64,000 nt of DNA from Robiginitalea sp. SC105. GTDB taxonomy: Bacteria > Bacteroidota > Bacteroidia > Flavobacteriales > Flavobacteriaceae. This document shows positions 30,368 through 37,110 of the stretch, in pieces. Each line of letters begins with the position of its first letter. The first letter of the stretch is position 1. Position numbers and translations under genes: made by a program. The notes under the pieces are model-generated. The model made no database searches and had not been told where the DNA came from. It saw only the letters and a list, made by a program, of their open reading frames with translations. The DNA lies in contig NZ_JACLZF010000001.1 in the NCBI RefSeq assembly GCF_014243345.1, forward strand, positions 558,001 to 622,000, given 5' to 3'.

Positions 30368-33300
30368 TTGGAACAGTATGAGTTGATCATTAGGAAGTTA
30401 GAGAAGTTCCTCAACCGGTACTACCTGCGGCAATTGCTCAAAGGGAGTTTCCTGTTTCTTTTCTTCGGGGGCCTGCTGCTGCTCCTGGTAAGCGGACTGG
30501 AGTATCTGCTCTGGATGGGAAGCGGGCTCCGCACGGTCTTGTTCTGGATATTGGTTGGAGTAGAGGTTGTATTGTTCCTTCGCTACCTGGTGGTTCCCGC
30601 CCTGCAACTTTTCAGGCTACGCCGCGGGCTGAGCTATAAAGAGGGCTCTGCGATGATCGGCCGGCATTTTCCGGAGGTGGATGACCGGCTGTACAACCTG
30701 CTGGAACTGGCCGAAAATCCTGCGAAATCCGAATTGCTGCTGGCCAGCATCGAACAACGGTCCCGGAATTTAAGGGAAATCCCTTTTTCCCGGGCAGTCA
30801 ATATGCGGGAGGGCCTCCGCTATGCCCGGTATGCAGCCCTGCCCGTGGGCATTGTCCTGGTTTTGTGGCTCACGGGAAAAGGACTGGATTTCTTGCAATC
30901 CTACCAAAGGGTAGTGGATTACCGCACGGCATATGAGCCCCCCGCCCCCTTTCAGTTCCGGATAATGAATGCAGGCCTTGAAACACGTGAAAACCTTCCC
31001 TTTACGCTCAAGGTTAGAACCGTAGGTGATGTGCAACCGGAAAATGTAGAGCTCGTGGCGGGGAGTCGCAGGATCCTTCTCGAAGATAAGGTCACCCATT
31101 TTGAATACACCTTCAGGCCACCCCTGGAATCCACGGAATTCCATTTGGAGGCAAACGATATCCGTTCCATGGATTATCAGCTGTCCGTGATCCGGGTACC
31201 AGTGATCGATCGTTTCCGCATGGATTTGGAGTTTCCGGCTTACCTGGGGCGGGCGGCCCAGCAGGTGCAGGGTACGGGGAGTATTACTGTGCCGGAAGGA
31301 ACCCGGATCCGTTGGAATATTCGTGCGGTACACACAGATACTGTTCGGTATGAAGATCAGGACACCGTGTTGATGGCCCTGCCGGATAATGATGAGTTCA
31401 TCCTTAACAAACGGATTTTCAAGGAGACGGCCTACCAGTTGAGCACATCCAACAGGCAGGTGAGCCGGTTTGACGAATTGAACTACCGGATCGATGTGAT
31501 CCGCGATGAGTATCCCAGGATTGCCGTACGGATGGTCCGGGATTCCCTGGAACCTAACCTGGCCTATTTCTCCGGCGAATTGACAGACGACTACGGATTA
31601 AGGGAATTAAGCGTCCGCTGTTTCCCTGTGGGGAATAAGGATGAGGTACAGGAAGTGGTCCTGGAGGCACCTACCGGCTCCTTCCAGACATTCTACTATA
31701 CCTTCCCATCCGGCTTGCAATTGGTGAGCGGACAGGATTATATGTTGGAATTCCGGGTACGGGACAATGATGGGATCCGGGGGGGCAAAGTAACCTCCAG
31801 TGAAACCTTCCGCATCTCCCAGTATACTCCGGAGGAACTCAGGGACCAACAGTTGCAATACCAGAATTCCCTGTTGGACGGACTCGGAAAAACGCGGAAG
31901 GAGCAGGAACGTTTGCAGGAGGAGCTGGACGCCTTCAAAAAGGAGCAGCAGGAAAAGGAAAACCTGGAATACGGGGACCAGCAGAAATTGAAGGAGGTAT
32001 TGAACCGGCAATTGAAACAGGAGCGCCTGATGGAGAAATTCAGCCGGGAACTGGGAGAAAACCTGAAATCCGACGAGGAAACGGACGATGAGTTTAAAGA
32101 GTTGCTGGAAGAACGCCTGGAAAGACAGGAGATAGAGGCACGGAAAAATGCCCAATTAATGGAGGAGATGCAGAAGATACTGGATCAGCTGGACAAAGAG
32201 GCCCTGAAGGAACGGATGGAGGAAATCGGTAAACGGCAGGAAGGAAACCGGCGGAGCATGGAGCAATTACTGGAACTCACTAAGCGGTATTACGTACAGG
32301 AAAAGTCCAGGCAATTGGCTTCAAAGCTCAAAATGTTGTCCGAAGAACAGGAAGTGCTTTCCGAATTGGAAAGGATGGTGAAAGATTTCTCCGAAGAGCA
32401 ACAGGAAAAGCTGAACGGGAAGTTCGAGGGCTTGCGCAAGGAATTAGGGGAATTGGAAAAGAGCAATCAGGATTTGAAAAAACCGCTACCCTGGAGCCGG
32501 GACCAAAAGAAGGAGGAAGGTGCGGCCGGTGATCAACAGGAGGCCCTGGAAATGCTACAAAAAATGCAGGTACCTGAAACTTCGGAGTCGGACCAGTCAG
32601 GTTCGGAGGCTGAAGCTTCCAAAAAGAAACAGAAGTCTGCCGCCCGTAAGATTCAGGAGCTTTCAGAAGCACTGCAACAGGGGGCAGCCTCGGGGGGAGG
32701 CAGCGGGGATGCGGAGGATGCGGAGATGCTGCGGCAAATCCTGGATAACCTGGTGGTATTTTCCTTTGAGCAGGAAGAACTGTTTGATGCCGTACAGGGA
32801 CTGGAGGAAGGTGCCTCCTCCCTAAGCGGGGACCTCCGCCAGCAGCAGGAGCTGCGGAAGATGTTCGAACATGTGGACGACAGCCTGTTTGCCTTGTCCC
32901 TGCGCAGGCCGAACATAGCGGAGGACGTGAACAAACAGATTACGGAAGTGTATTATAACATAGATAAGGGGTTGGAAAGCCTGAGTGAAAACCAATGGTA
33001 TCGCGGGGCGTCTTACCAACAGTATGTAATAACCGCGTCGAACGAACTTGCAGCCATGCTGGCTGTTTCCCTGGAAAACATGCAGGAGTCCATGCAACCG
33101 GGTTCCGGTCAGGGCTCCGGGGACTTCCAATTGCCGGATATCATCCAAAGCCAGGAGCAATTGCGCCAAAAGATGCAGGGGAGCCAGCAAGGCGAATCAG
33201 AATCCGGTTCACAAGGGAAAGAAGGGGAGTCCGGTGAAGGGGAGCAGGGCCAACAAGGCCAACAAGGGCAACAGGGCCAACAAGGGGCGCAAGGGCAGGA

Positions 33301-33889
33301 AGGAAACTCCGGCGGGCAATCCGGCAAGGGCAATGAAGGCAATGACGGCGGGCAGGGTAGCGGGTCTGAGGGTCAGGACAACGGAAATTCCGGCAGGGAT
33401 GGGCAAGGTGAAGGGAATGGCGGTCAGGATGGATCCGGGAGTGAAGGTTCCGGCGAAGGGAATGAAGAGATGAGTTACCAGGAATTGTTTGAGATCTATA
33501 AGGAACAGCAGATCATACGGAACCGTCTGGAGGAACAATTAAAGGATATGATCGACAATTCGGACAGGGAACTAGCCAAACGGATTGCACGGGATATGGA
33601 GCAATTCGAAGAAGAGTTGCTGCGAAGCGGGATTACAACACGTACGGCCGATCGGATCAACAAAATACAGCAGCAATTGATGAAGTTGGAGAACGCTTCT
33701 TTTGAGCAGGGGGAAAAGGAGGAGCGCGAAAGCCGCACCAACAGGACGCGTTTTGTCAATCCGATCACAACACGGCCGGAAGTCTTTGAAAATGAGGAGG
33801 AGAACATTGAAATATTGAACAGACAAGTATTACCTTTGCGCCGCATTTATAAAACCAAGATAAAGGCGTATTTCCAGGATGAAGATTGA
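30368..33889 (+). CDS. Large DUF4175 family membrane protein
   Basis: A 1173-residue protein. Three membrane helices lie in the first 170 residues (FLFLFFGGLLLLLVSGLEYL; FWILVGVEVVLFLRYLVV; a third near 155-172). A periplasmic beta-rich region follows (about 180-490), then long charged coiled coil (about 500-740, rich in K, E, Q, L), and a Gly/Gln/Ser/Glu-rich disordered stretch (about 920-1035) before a final helical part. The overall plan fits DUF4175, common in Bacteroidota and of unknown function. Translation likely starts at TTG (30368), since the next in-frame ATG falls inside the first helix region. The end overlaps ybeY by 11 bases. Confidence 0.8.
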   Translation: MEQYELIIRKLEKFLNRYYLRQLLKGSFLFLFFGGLLLLLVSGLEYLLWMGSGLRTVLFWILVGVEVVLFLRYLVVPALQLFRLRRGLSYKEGSAMIGRHFPEVDDRLYNLLELAENPAKSELLLASIEQRSRNLREIPFSRAVNMREGLRYARYAALPVGIVLVLWLTGKGLDFLQSYQRVVDYRTAYEPPAPFQFRIMNAGLETRENLPFTLKVRTVGDVQPENVELVAGSRRILLEDKVTHFEYTFRPPLESTEFHLEANDIRSMDYQLSVIRVPVIDRFRMDLEFPAYLGRAAQQVQGTGSITVPEGTRIRWNIRAVHTDTVRYEDQDTVLMALPDNDEFILNKRIFKETAYQLSTSNRQVSRFDELNYRIDVIRDEYPRIAVRMVRDSLEPNLAYFSGELTDDYGLRELSVRCFPVGNKDEVQEVVLEAPTGSFQTFYYTFPSGLQLVSGQDYMLEFRVRDNDGIRGGKVTSSETFRISQYTPEELRDQQLQYQNSLLDGLGKTRKEQERLQEELDAFKKEQQEKENLEYGDQQKLKEVLNRQLKQERLMEKFSRELGENLKSDEETDDEFKELLEERLERQEIEARKNAQLMEEMQKILDQLDKEALKERMEEIGKRQEGNRRSMEQLLELTKRYYVQEKSRQLASKLKMLSEEQEVLSELERMVKDFSEEQQEKLNGKFEGLRKELGELEKSNQDLKKPLPWSRDQKKEEGAAGDQQEALEMLQKMQVPETSESDQSGSEAEASKKKQKSAARKIQELSEALQQGAASGGGSGDAEDAEMLRQILDNLVVFSFEQEELFDAVQGLEEGASSLSGDLRQQQELRKMFEHVDDSLFALSLRRPNIAEDVNKQITEVYYNIDKGLESLSENQWYRGASYQQYVITASNELAAMLAVSLENMQESMQPGSGQGSGDFQLPDIIQSQEQLRQKMQGSQQGESESGSQGKEGESGEGEQGQQGQQGQQGQQGAQGQEGNSGGQSGKGNEGNDGGQGSGSEGQDNGNSGRDGQGEGNGGQDGSGSEGSGEGNEEMSYQELFEIYKEQQIIRNRLEEQLKDMIDNSDRELAKRIARDMEQFEEELLRSGITTRTADRINKIQQQLMKLENASFEQGEKEERESRTNRTRFVNPITTRPEVFENEEENIEILNRQVLPLRRIYKTKIKAYFQDED
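33241..33302 (+). repeat. In-frame 9-base tandem repeat (QQG units)
   Basis: Imperfect copies of a CAACAAGGN-type 9-base unit encode GEQGQQGQQGQQGQQGAQGQ inside the DUF4175 gene. The unit length keeps the frame, so copy-number change would lengthen or shorten the linker without a frameshift. Confidence 0.75.
33807..33838 (+). promoter_or_regulatory. Possible internal promoter for ybeY-mnmG
   Basis: TTG (33807-33809), 21 bases, then TACCTTTG (33831-33838), a full match to the Bacteroidota promoter pattern. It lies inside the end of the DUF4175 gene, 40 bases before the ybeY start, and could drive ybeY and mnmG separately from the upstream gene. Confidence 0.45.
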
Positions 33890-34301
33890 GTACCACTCGG
33901 AGACTGATTTCCAGTTATTGGAGCCCCGAAAATATACCGAATGGATTAAAAAGGTTGTTGCCTCCAGGGGCATGTACATCGAGGAACTCAGTTTTATTTT
34001 TTGTTCCGATGATTACTTGTTGGACATGAATCAAAAGTACCTGGGCCACGACTATTTTACAGACATCATTACGTTTCCAAATGCGGAAGGCTCCGGAGTT
34101 GGAGGCGATCTGTTTATTTCGGTAGACCGGGTGCGCGATAATGCCCGGGAGTACGGGGTCGACTTTGACCATGAATTGGCACGCGTAATGATTCATGGGG
34201 TATTGCATTTGTCTGGTTTAAATGATAAGACAGCAGCAGAGCAACAACAGATGCGTAAGGAGGAGGACCGTTGCCTGGAAATGTTCCACGTGAAACAATA
34301 G
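33879..34301 (+). CDS. ybeY: Endoribonuclease YbeY (rRNA maturation factor)
   Basis: A 140-residue UPF0054 family metalloprotein needed for 16S rRNA 3' maturation and ribosome quality control. LGHDYFTDIITFP and GDLFISVDRVRDNA are family signatures. The metal site reads HGVLHLSGLND: the first two His are kept, but the third ligand position of the classic HGxLHLxGYDH is Asp here, a form I believe is common in Bacteroidota. Its last six residues, MFHVKQ, are encoded by a parS-like site (34282-34297). It overlaps the DUF4175 gene by 11 bases and mnmG follows after 2 bases. Confidence 0.92.
   Translation: MKIEYHSETDFQLLEPRKYTEWIKKVVASRGMYIEELSFIFCSDDYLLDMNQKYLGHDYFTDIITFPNAEGSGVGGDLFISVDRVRDNAREYGVDFDHELARVMIHGVLHLSGLNDKTAAEQQQMRKEEDRCLEMFHVKQ
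34282..34297. other. parS-type ParB binding site
   Basis: TGTTCCACGTGAAACA matches the widely conserved parS consensus TGTTNCACGTGAAACA at every position. It lies in the last codons of ybeY, so the site also encodes the C-terminus of YbeY. parS sites normally cluster near oriC and nucleate the ParB/Smc partition complex. No parA or parB gene is in this window. Confidence 0.82.
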
Positions 34302-34303
34302 CG

Positions 34304-36172
34304 ATGTTTGAAGGAGAATATGATGTAATCGTAGTAGGTGGCGGCCACGCTGGTTGCGAGGCGGCCGCGGCCGCGGCCAATATGGGTTCCAGCACCCTGC
34401 TGGTTACCATGAACCTGCAAACCATTGGGCAGATGTCCTGCAATCCGGCCATGGGGGGGATCGCCAAGGGACAAATTGTCCGGGAGATTGATGCCCTGGG
34501 GGGATACAGCGGAGTAATAACCGACCGGTCTGCCATACAGTTTAAGATGCTCAACAAATCCAAGGGACCCGCCATGTGGAGTCCGCGCGCCCAAAGTGAT
34601 CGGATGCGGTTTGCGGAGGAATGGCGGATGGCACTGGAACAAACGGAAAACCTGGATTTCTACCAGGAAATGGTGAGTGATCTGTTGATTAGCGGAGACC
34701 GGGTCGCAGGTGTGCGTACCTCCCTGGGCCTGGAGATCAGGGGACGGAGTGTGGTCCTTACCAACGGCACCTTCCTCAATGGGTTAATTCATATTGGGGA
34801 CAAGCAGTTCGGTGGGGGTCGAGCAGGCGAAAGGGCAGCTAGGGGCATTACCGAACAGCTCACCCAGGTTGGTTTTGATTCCGGGCGGATGAAGACGGGT
34901 ACCCCCCCTAGGGTAGACGGACGAAGCCTGGATTATTCGAAGATGGTGGTGCAACCCGGGGATGATGAACCCGGTCGTTTTTCTTATTTGGACACACCTT
35001 TGCTGAAACGGCAACGGGATTGCCATATGACCTACACGAGCCCCGAGGTGCATGACCTCTTACGGGAAGGATTTGACAGGAGCCCCATGTTCAACGGGCG
35101 TATAAAAAGTATCGGACCCCGTTATTGCCCATCCATCGAGGACAAAATTCACCGGTTCAGCGACAAGGACCGGCATCAGATATTTGTAGAACCGGAAGGT
35201 TGGAGTACCGTAGAGGTGTATGTGAATGGCTTCAGCACCTCCCTGCCGGAAGATGTGCAATACCGCGCCCTTAAATCGGTCGCAGGTTTTGAAAAGGTCA
35301 AATTTTTTCGCCCGGGCTATGCCATCGAATACGACTATTTTCCCCCAACCCAGTTACGGCATACACTGGAGACAAAATTGATTTCCAACCTCTATTTTGC
35401 CGGTCAAATCAACGGGACAACGGGCTACGAGGAAGCTGCTTCACAGGGGCTCATGGCCGGCATCAATGCGCACCTTAAATTACAGGAAAAGGAGCCTTTT
35501 ATACTCAGGCGGGACGAAGCTTACATTGGCGTACTTATCGACGACCTGATCACCAAAGGCACGGAAGAACCTTATCGCATGTTCACCAGCCGGGCCGAAT
35601 ACCGGACGCTGTTGCGCCAGGATAATGCGGACCTTCGCTTAACAGAAAGAGGGTATCGTATCGGGCTTGCCTCAGAGGCCCGATTGCGTGCCGTGGAATT
35701 AAAGAGATCCCAGGCAGAGGAACTGGTAGGATTCTTTAAACAGACCAGTTTTGTGCCTGAAGAAATCAACCCGATCCTGGAAACAGTAGGTTCCAAAAAA
35801 GTAAAACAAGGGGATAAGCTTTTTAAGGTTTTTGCAAGGCCCCAGGTGGCAATGAAACACATGCTGCAACTGGACAGCGTTTCGGATTATATACGGGAAA
35901 AGGACCTGGGGTCTGAGGTGCTGGAACAGGCGGAAATCGAGGTGAAATATTCAGGGTACATCGAAAAGGAAAAGACAAATGCCGACAAATTGCAACGCCT
36001 GGAGAACATCAAAATCCCCGAGCAATTTGATTACACCCAGGTCAGATCCCTTTCTTATGAGGCGCGGGAAAAGCTGGGCAAAATCCGCCCGGCAACCCTT
36101 TCACAGGCTTCCAGGGTAAGTGGAGTGTCGCCGAGCGACATCAGCGTTTTGATGGTTTTCCTGGGACGATAG
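34304..36172 (+). CDS. mnmG: tRNA uridine-5-carboxymethylaminomethyl(34) synthesis enzyme MnmG
   Basis: A 622-residue FAD enzyme (GidA) that with MnmE modifies the wobble uridine of certain tRNAs. FAD binding: YDVIVVGGGHAGCEAAAAAA at the N-terminus. Family signatures: SCNPAMGGIAKGQIVREIDA, MKTGTPPRVDGRSLDYSK and GQINGTTGYEEAASQGLMAG. The C-terminal helical domain that contacts MnmE and tRNA is complete (RPATLSQASRVSGVSPSDIS). The ATG at 34304 is preferred over an upstream TTG because it begins at the usual N-terminus. parS-like sites lie just before the start and across the stop. Confidence 0.96.
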   Translation: MFEGEYDVIVVGGGHAGCEAAAAAANMGSSTLLVTMNLQTIGQMSCNPAMGGIAKGQIVREIDALGGYSGVITDRSAIQFKMLNKSKGPAMWSPRAQSDRMRFAEEWRMALEQTENLDFYQEMVSDLLISGDRVAGVRTSLGLEIRGRSVVLTNGTFLNGLIHIGDKQFGGGRAGERAARGITEQLTQVGFDSGRMKTGTPPRVDGRSLDYSKMVVQPGDDEPGRFSYLDTPLLKRQRDCHMTYTSPEVHDLLREGFDRSPMFNGRIKSIGPRYCPSIEDKIHRFSDKDRHQIFVEPEGWSTVEVYVNGFSTSLPEDVQYRALKSVAGFEKVKFFRPGYAIEYDYFPPTQLRHTLETKLISNLYFAGQINGTTGYEEAASQGLMAGINAHLKLQEKEPFILRRDEAYIGVLIDDLITKGTEEPYRMFTSRAEYRTLLRQDNADLRLTERGYRIGLASEARLRAVELKRSQAEELVGFFKQTSFVPEEINPILETVGSKKVKQGDKLFKVFARPQVAMKHMLQLDSVSDYIREKDLGSEVLEQAEIEVKYSGYIEKEKTNADKLQRLENIKIPEQFDYTQVRSLSYEAREKLGKIRPATLSQASRVSGVSPSDISVLMVFLGR

Positions 36173-36186
36173 TTCCACGTGGAACA
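36171..36186. other. Second parS-like site, palindromic form
   Basis: AGTTCCACGTGGAACA contains the perfect 14-base palindrome GTTCCACGTGGAAC (36172-36185), a close variant of parS. It overlaps the mnmG stop codon. With the site at 34282 it brackets mnmG, 1.9 kb apart. Confidence 0.68.
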
Positions 36187-36231
36187 ATAGTGCCAAGCCG
36201 TAAATATTCCATAATAAGAAGCATCACCAGC

Positions 36232-37110
36232 ATGTCCTTAAAGCCCCAGCCAGCTATTCTAGATCCGGTCCTTTCAACAAAGGATTACATGGTTAGCGGG
36301 GAAGAGTTTCGCATCTGCAGGCACCCTGCATTCGAGGGCTTGCTTTATACGCATCCTTTGCCGGATCAGCTGGATCCCTATTATGAATCCGAGGAGTACC
36401 TGTCCCACCAGGATCGGCCCGAAACATTTCTCGGCAGGCTTTATCGATCCGCACGAAATTGGAATATCCGCTGGAAGCTTTCCCTTTTGAAAGACTACAT
36501 CCCTGCTTCGGCATCCCTGCTGGAGGTTGGATGTGGACAAGGAGATTTCCTGGAGGCAGCCGGAAGGGTTTGGGAGGTAACCGGGGTGGAACCGAATGCA
36601 GGCGCCAGGGGCCGGGCCCGGAATAAAGGACTCGAGGTATATGCCGGACTTGGCGATGTACCTGCAGGATCCAGGGAAGGGATTGTCCTGTGGCATGTGC
36701 TCGAGCACATCCCGGACCTCGAAGGCACCATTGTCCAAATACGATCCCTTTTGCGCCAGGGCGGCTACCTGTTCCTGGCCCTTCCCAACCATCAATCCGG
36801 GGATGCAAAATTCTACGGGGAATACTGGGCGGGATATGATGTGCCTCGTCATGTTTGGCATTTTACAAAGGAACCCGTCAAACAGCTTTTTGGCGCCTAT
36901 GGTTTTGAAGTAGTGCAAATGAAGCCCATGTGGCTCGATGCATTTTATGTGTCCTGGCTTTCCGAAAAATACAGGGGTAACCGATGGGCTCCCTTTGCGG
37001 GGGCATACCGGGGTTTGGTTTCCAACTTGTCCGCCCTGAGGACCAGTCAGCCCTCCTCCCTGGTTTATATCCTTCGGTATGCAGGCCCCAGCAGCCAACA
37101 AGCCAAATAG
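36232..37110 (+). CDS. Class I SAM-dependent methyltransferase
   Basis: A 292-residue protein with a SAM-binding Rossmann fold: SLLEVGCGQGDFLEAAGR is motif I and VLWHVLEHIPDLEGTI is the motif of the Methyltransf_23/UbiE-like group. The N-terminal part has a short region (YMVSGEEFRICRHP) with the spacing of a degenerate zinc-binding segment, and the C-terminal GYDVPRHVWHFTKE is common in methyltransferases near sugar loci. The substrate is unknown. An earlier GTG (36190) is possible, but the ATG at 36232 gives a more normal N-terminus and lies clear of the parS-like site. Confidence 0.85.
   Translation: MSLKPQPAILDPVLSTKDYMVSGEEFRICRHPAFEGLLYTHPLPDQLDPYYESEEYLSHQDRPETFLGRLYRSARNWNIRWKLSLLKDYIPASASLLEVGCGQGDFLEAAGRVWEVTGVEPNAGARGRARNKGLEVYAGLGDVPAGSREGIVLWHVLEHIPDLEGTIVQIRSLLRQGGYLFLALPNHQSGDAKFYGEYWAGYDVPRHVWHFTKEPVKQLFGAYGFEVVQMKPMWLDAFYVSWLSEKYRGNRWAPFAGAYRGLVSNLSALRTSQPSSLVYILRYAGPSSQQAK

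What the first reader, a model, noticed from the sequence alone, without database searches (positions are those of the whole stretch)
34282..36186. Two parS-like sites bracket mnmG, one encoding the C-terminus of YbeY
TGTTCCACGTGAAACA (34282-34297) is a full match to the parS consensus and doubles as the last YbeY codons (MFHVKQ). A palindromic variant spans the mnmG stop (36171-36186). Protein end and partition site are thus under joint selection. In most bacteria parS lies near oriC, so this fixes the window's likely chromosomal position.
Basis: partly seen in the sequence, partly recalled or inferred. Interest (0 to 1): 0.72.

Follow-up and report, generated by a model that had tools for sequence, protein, structure and literature searches.

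The report
Centromere sites flanking mnmG
Two short DNA sites of the kind bacteria use as a chromosome "centromere" sit on either side of the tRNA-modification gene mnmG in this Flavobacteriaceae genome and at or near mnmG in most relatives examined, and one of them spells out the last few amino acids of the neighbouring protein YbeY.

Summary
The two sites are the only parS matches in the 3.58 Mb genome, even at one mismatch. A ParA-ParB pair lies 1.17 Mb away; its ParB keeps residues tied to parS binding and CTP gating. Of 80 loci fetched by MnmG similarity, 76 have an exact site just 5' of mnmG, 69 just 3', 66 both. In the phylum sample 274 of 296 genomes have exact sites; of 37 outgroup genomes whose places were listed, 33 have one within 600 bp of mnmG.

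Selection acts on the DNA: the site lies inside ybeY in 39 of 77 loci and after its stop in 35. In FHV[EK] tails His is always CAC and Val always GTG, beyond codon usage. The YbeY tail looks like a by-product of the centromere, not a jointly selected protein end.

"Near oriC" holds in relatives: 22 of 22 16S genes run away from parS, 10 of 22 from dnaA, and GC skew switches 35-110 kb from parS in two genomes. The own genome's skew is too weak to show it. No SMC or ScpA was found. Binding is inferred, not shown.

The parts
34282..34297 (+). parS site 1 (16-mer; 14-bp core 34283-34296), inside the last codons of ybeY and 6 bp before the mnmG ATG
   Evidence: 0 mismatches; one of only two sites in the genome; a 5' site is present in 76 of 80 named mnmG loci
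36171..36186 (+). parS site 2 (perfect 14-bp palindrome 36172-36185), overlapping the mnmG stop by 2 bases
   Evidence: a 3' site is present in 69 of 80 named mnmG loci
33879..34301 (+). ybeY (rRNA maturation RNase); tail MFHVKQ encoded by parS site 1
   Evidence: TIGR00043 E 8e-30; translation
34304..36172 (+). mnmG/gidA, the gene bracketed by the two sites (the ORF is open from TTG 34271, but ATG 34304 is the likely start)
   Evidence: TIGR00136 E 1e-253; translation
36190..37110 (+). next gene downstream of site 2, weakly methyltransferase-like; not part of the partition system
   Evidence: weak matches NF045667 and TIGR01983, both under cut-off

Best explanation
The two sites are the chromosomal centromere (parS) of a ParABS partition system. 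Inferred step by step: the single chromosomal ParB binds each 16-bp palindrome, closes as a CTP clamp and slides away. The ParB-coated DNA over and around mnmG is then moved by the ParA ATPase, so that the origin-proximal region segregates first. Shown here: the sites, their uniqueness, the ParA and ParB genes with intact DNA-specificity and CTP motifs, conservation at mnmG across the phylum sample, and closeness to the replication-strand switch in relatives. Inferred: binding, sliding and segregation. The YbeY tail FHV[EK] is what the parS DNA happens to read as when the ybeY frame stays open through it. The absence of SMC and ScpA hits suggests that ParA-driven movement, not SMC loading, is the main output of the site here.
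For: Two sites in 3.58 Mb and no other at 1 mismatch. One ParB, E 7e-49, next to ParA. ParB aligns to Spo0J/Noc/ParB structures with GKKRS..N and MGHGR, which I match by motif to the R173 and G201 parS-type residues of Jalal 2020 (PMC7383237, passages seen), and with QPR, SIRELG, GERR and ENIQR, matching the CTP-contacting residues named in passages of PMC8367383. Exact sites in 34 of 39 relatives plus the own genome and in 274 of 296 genomes of the phylum sample, own included; the reversed pattern matches in 14 of 296 by my count. 76 of 80 mnmG loci have a 5' site, 66 of 80 both. 33 of 37 outgroup genomes have a site within 600 bp of mnmG, and 7 of 9 genomes without an exact site have a 1-mismatch site there, reversed control 0 of 9. 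ParB in 62 of 62 genomes searched. His codon CAC 39 of 39 (13.8 expected), Val codon GTG 37 of 37 (6.9 expected). 16S direction 22 of 22.
Against: No binding data. Nine of 56 outgroup genomes have no exact site; two of those nine show nothing within 1 mismatch at mnmG. Four of 37 have their sites on another contig than mnmG, and 6 of 24 class-level parS loci hold no mnmG within 1.5 kb. Capnocytophaga L099 has no site within 2 mismatches at mnmG. Own-genome GC skew shows no clean origin; fourfold-site skew does not show the split even in G002 and G141. No DnaA-box cluster was found near the sites. In G041 the 16S genes fit an origin at parS in only 1 of 2 cases. parAB is not a neighbour of parS in any of 12 genomes measured, unlike the textbook neighbourhood.
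Confidence: 0.93

Rival explanations
1. The YbeY tail MFHVKQ is a functional, conserved peptide, and the parS resemblance is a codon coincidence.
For: The FHV[EK] tail recurs in 37 of 77 loci, plus FHMEQ in 2 of 77.
Against: 35 of 77 loci have YbeY ending before the site while the DNA site persists. The tail state changed at least 7 times on the MnmG tree, 4 of them forced by well-supported branches. His and Val use one codon only. The same motif recurs 3' of mnmG, where no YbeY is encoded.
Confidence: 0.02
2. The palindromes work as RNA hairpins (attenuator or terminator) around mnmG, not as DNA sites.
For: They sit just before the start and just after the stop of mnmG, and palindromes can fold as RNA.
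Against: Asymmetric variants that break the RNA pair (C-A, 38 of 180 sites) are at least as common as those that keep it by wobble (U-G, 22 of 180). The letters themselves, not just the pairing, recur across a phylum sample. In some genomes many copies lie in tandem, eight within about 440 bp in G243.
Confidence: 0.03
3. A transcription factor's operator (CACGTG core) or a Noc-type site bound by a ParB paralogue.
For: The location at the mnmG start is promoter-like. TIGR04285 (Noc) gives the best E-value on ParB, but under its cut-off.
Against: Only two sites, not dispersed. By my motif mapping ParB keeps R and G at the two positions that differ between ParB and Noc. One ParB in the genome.
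Confidence: 0.02

Closest known systems
Chromosomal ParABS / parS centromeres (B. subtilis Spo0J-parS, Caulobacter ParB-parS; Livny et al. 2007 survey, not held here, recalled)
   Same: Same 16-bp consensus, few copies, one chromosomal ParA and ParB, origin-proximal in relatives
   Different: parS stays at mnmG while parAB lies 0.3-1.2 Mb away in 12 of 12 genomes measured; one site doubles as the C-terminus of YbeY in about half of the loci
parS of gut Bacteroidetes (PMC10197239, passages seen): parS clustered at the origin, origin not always at dnaA, no known condensin found in its two Bacteroidetes
   Same: In Flavobacteriaceae the origin region is marked by parS and not by dnaA; no SMC over cut-off and no ScpA in the own genome
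   Different: The passages seen do not mention mnmG or ybeY; here mnmG is shown as the usual anchor in the phylum sample
gidA as an origin-linked gene (PMC2099444, passages seen: parA, parB, gidA, gidB, dnaA and others as a possible ancestral origin cluster)
   Same: gidA (mnmG) lies near the replication-strand switch; in 3 of 6 one-contig genomes outside the order dnaA is still within roughly 15-75 kb of it (lengths rounded)
   Different: The cluster is broken up: parAB is far in all 12 genomes measured and dnaA far in the seven Flavobacteriaceae; mnmG keeps parS
Noc / NBS nucleoid occlusion sites
   Same: Related protein family and similar palindrome
   Different: Two clustered sites instead of many dispersed; parS-type specificity residues in the ParB

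Membership tests
Chromosomal ParABS (parS) | 16-bp parS consensus palindrome | tested here: met
   0 mismatches for site 1; perfect 14-bp palindrome for site 2, which has 2 mismatches to the 16-mer
Chromosomal ParABS (parS) | few sites, clustered on the chromosome | tested here: met
   2 sites 1.89 kb apart, no other within 1 mismatch in 3.58 Mb
Chromosomal ParABS (parS) | cognate ParB with parS-type recognition residues and CTP motifs | tested here: met
   read against passages; residue numbering mapped by me from motifs
Chromosomal ParABS (parS) | partner ParA ATPase | tested here: met
   257-aa ATPase with KGGVGKTT directly upstream of parB; ParA/MinD-type NCBIfam matches, all listed ones under their cut-offs
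Chromosomal ParABS (parS) | origin-proximal position | tested here: inconclusive
   met in relatives: 22 of 22 16S genes in seven Flavobacteriaceae and plain-skew switch in G002 and G141; own genome's skew too weak
Chromosomal ParABS (parS) | ParB binds the site in the cell and moves it at segregation | not testable with these tools
   needs ChIP-seq or imaging
SMC-ScpAB loading site | SMC and ScpA in the genome | tested here: not met
   no SMC over cut-off, best 25 bits; ScpA 0 of 1
Noc/NBS | NBS-type residues (Q173, R201) and dispersed sites | tested here: not met
   R and G kept; two clustered sites

The most novel reading that the evidence does not exclude
mnmG is the phylum-wide home of the Bacteroidota centromere, kept while parAB (and in Flavobacteriaceae dnaA too) moved away and SMC-ScpAB is missing, because ParB loading on both sides of mnmG also tunes its expression and so couples tRNA modification to chromosome segregation. 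Meanwhile the centromere has repeatedly written and erased the C-terminus of YbeY.
Probability: 0.15. Interest if true: 0.75.

Novelty: new member of a known kind. Interest (0 to 1): 0.5.

Why it matters
Chromosome segregation is little studied in Bacteroidota (my general knowledge). A centromere address at mnmG, readable from sequence alone, marks the origin region in Flavobacteriaceae, where dnaA does not. It would correct origin assignments, growth-rate estimates from coverage, and the start points of genome records. The YbeY tail is a clear case of a DNA-binding site dictating a protein's end, which warns against reading such conserved tails as protein function.

Tried and rejected
Fourfold-site GC skew did not give a clean origin in G002, G141 or G000, whereas plain GC skew did in G002 and, with exceptions, in G141. 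A search for a DnaA-box cluster near the sites gave at most 2-3 boxes in 500 bp, so oriC itself is not located. A first count of YbeY tails was inflated because tblastn had read through stop codons in L104, L105, L107 and L110; it was redone from the conserved core motif, and only the redone counts are used. RNA-hairpin, codon-coincidence and Noc readings were considered and rejected as told under rivals. Literature: searches listed no paper whose title or abstract start describes parS at mnmG in Bacteroidota or a parS-encoded YbeY end. The lists were capped at 20, only passages of five papers were opened, and Livny et al. 2007 is not held, so earlier notice cannot be excluded.

Rows dropped and choices made: 3 of 80 named loci had no ybeY in the stretch and were left out of YbeY counts. 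The 56 outgroup genomes were picked by me, at least one from each of 48 families outside the order, with nine site-less genomes taken on purpose. In one search, 37 of the 47 with sites were used, because one search listed no places for the other 10. In the 16S count two damaged 16S copies (one in G002 in two pieces, one in G333 in pieces) count as one gene each, and the terminus is assumed opposite the origin. G041 was computed but left out of the 22-gene total because it is not in the family (1 of 2 for either origin). G217 (one 16S gene) was not scored because its parS places were not listed. Four of the 14 genomes gave no 16S match, and the own genome's only one lies on the small third contig.

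Full report
What is there. The 16-mer TGTTCCACGTGAAACA (34282-34297) and the palindrome AGTTCCACGTGGAACA (36171-36186) are present as described. The first covers the last codons of ybeY (ATG TTC CAC GTG AAA CAA TAG) and ends six bases before the likely mnmG ATG at 34304. The second overlaps the last two bases of the mnmG stop. The genes are YbeY (TIGR00043) and MnmG (TIGR00136). The window is C1:558001-622000 of a 3.58 Mb assembly in 3 contigs, and these are the only two matches to GTTYCACGTGRAAC in it, allowing one mismatch.

The rest of the system. The one ParB found (E 7e-49) lies directly downstream of a 257-aa ParA-type ATPase, 1.17 Mb from the sites on the same contig. Against Spo0J, Noc and ParB structures the ParB shows GKKRSTVTN and MGHGR. 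By motif position (my mapping) it therefore has the R173 and G201 that PMC7383237 (passages seen) reports as conserved in ParB and changed in Noc. It also has QPR, SIRELG, GERR and ENIQR, matching the residues Q58, R60, S74, G79, E102, R103, R104, E135, N136 and R139 of the CTP pocket as named in PMC8367383 (passages seen; again my mapping). SMC has no match over the cut-off (best 25 bits) and ScpA no match. This agrees with PMC10197239 (passages seen), which found no known condensins in its two gut Bacteroidetes.

Conservation. Besides the own genome, 34 of 39 relatives have exact sites. All 8 congeners with a match have two, 1,889-1,891 bp apart; the one congener without is 74% complete. In the phylum sample 274 of 296 genomes match (own included), most often with two sites; the pattern read backwards matches in 14 of 296 by my count. 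Eighty named loci were fetched by MnmG similarity, not by the motif: 76 have a site 5' of mnmG within 600 bp, 69 have one 3', 66 have both and one (Capnocytophaga, L099) has neither. Some loci without an exact copy keep a one-mismatch copy in the same place, for example GTTCCACATGGAAC in L074 and L092. Further out, 18 of 24 class-level loci around parS hold mnmG within 1.5 kb (L134-L157). I then picked 56 genomes outside the order, at least one from each of 48 families: 47 have exact sites. Of the 37 whose places were listed, 33 have one within 600 bp of mnmG, 12 of them on both sides. Of the 9 without an exact site, 7 have a one-mismatch site at mnmG, with the reversed-pattern control at 0 of 9. 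ParB was found in 62 of 62 genomes searched. Exceptions are real: four of the 37 have their sites on other contigs than mnmG, and two of the nine have nothing within one mismatch.

DNA, not peptide. In 77 loci with ybeY, the site is inside the gene in 39 (37 read FHV[EK], 2 read VSRET in another frame), after the stop in 35, and not exact in 3 (two of these read FHMEQ). In the 39 tails matching FH.[EK], chosen without regard to codons, His is CAC in 39 of 39 (13.8 expected from each locus's mnmG codon usage); of the 37 with Val, it is GTG in 37 (6.9 expected). Loci are related, so these are not independent trials. On a FastTree MnmG tree the inside/outside state changes at least 7 times, 4 of them forced by well-supported branches (L074 and L092 counted as inside, L112 not counted). 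The parsimonious reading is that parS is held in place and the YbeY frame closes before it or runs into it. The two half-sites vary independently, and pair-breaking C-A combinations (38 of 180 sites) are at least as common as U-G ones (22 of 180), which argues against an RNA hairpin.

Where the origin is. In seven Flavobacteriaceae genomes, one-contig or complete, 22 of 22 16S genes run away from parS, but only 10 of 22 run away from dnaA (terminus assumed opposite; two damaged 16S copies counted). In same-genus G002, the 20 sampled stretches split into one negative and one positive arc, switching between 795 and 860 kb (parS at 757 kb) and again between 2360 and 2580 kb. In G141 the switch lies between 1.63 and 1.70 Mb (parS at 1.593 Mb), with three stretches of 20 off-sign or zero. 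In both, the switch is on the 5' side of mnmG. In the window's own genome the skew is weak; the local minimum in the 252 kb read is near 527 kb, also on the 5' side. Fourfold-site skew gave no clean answer, and no DnaA-box cluster was found. In these Flavobacteriaceae parB lies 0.8-1.2 Mb (six genomes) and dnaA 0.9-1.6 Mb (seven) from parS. Outside the order, six one-contig genomes have parB 0.3-1.1 Mb from mnmG, while dnaA is near mnmG in three (G041 16 kb, G068 27 kb, G042 about 26 kb with a rounded genome length) and 0.25-1.0 Mb away in three. So parAB is uncoupled from mnmG in all 12 measured, dnaA in only some.

Conclusion. This is, by sequence, a chromosomal parS pair of a ParABS system. 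Its unusual features are the anchor gene mnmG across a phylum sample, its separation from parAB, and the overlap with ybeY. Binding, sliding and segregation are inferred from the family. My literature searches (listings only, capped) showed nothing on the mnmG anchor or the YbeY tail; the key survey (Livny 2007) is not held. The genus is probably Robiginitalea: I recall the chromosome length of R. biformata as that of G002; no call names it.

Noticed in passing
window 33879-34301 (YbeY, HGVLHLSGLND): The third position of the YbeY metal triad H-x3-H-x5-H is Asp, not His, here and in 77 of 77 loci, while 4 of 4 solved YbeY chains align with GYDH there. PMC6943124 (passages seen) describes a histidine triad. 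Whether this is already known was not searched.
   Followed up: partly
window 34271-34303: The mnmG frame is open upstream of its ATG through parS, read as VPRET, and several MnmG tblastn matches run into it. Automatic start calls at TTG or GTG codons here may be wrong.
   Followed up: partly
genome G000 (whole): No SMC over the cut-off and no ScpA found; what condenses this chromosome is open. MukB and MksB were not searched.
   Followed up: partly
L064, L066, L070 (Flavobacterium by record title); G243, G208 (genus g32): Tandem clusters of 5' parS copies, mostly about 40-70 bp apart, lie on the ybeY side of mnmG, where relatives have one: six or seven in L064, L066 and L070, seven or eight in G208 and G243. 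Genomes of genus g32 hold 3 to 10 sites.
   Followed up: no
L074, L092, L081, L082, L084: Recurrent one-base variants GTTCCACATGGAAC or GTTCCATGTGGAAC stand in place of one of the pair and break the central CACGTG symmetry; perhaps weaker ParB sites.
   Followed up: no
window 30368-33889: A 1173-aa ORF with a long low-complexity stretch rich in Gly, Gln, Asn and Ser; no Pfam match at 1e-5 and only a sub-cut-off NCBIfam match.
   Followed up: no
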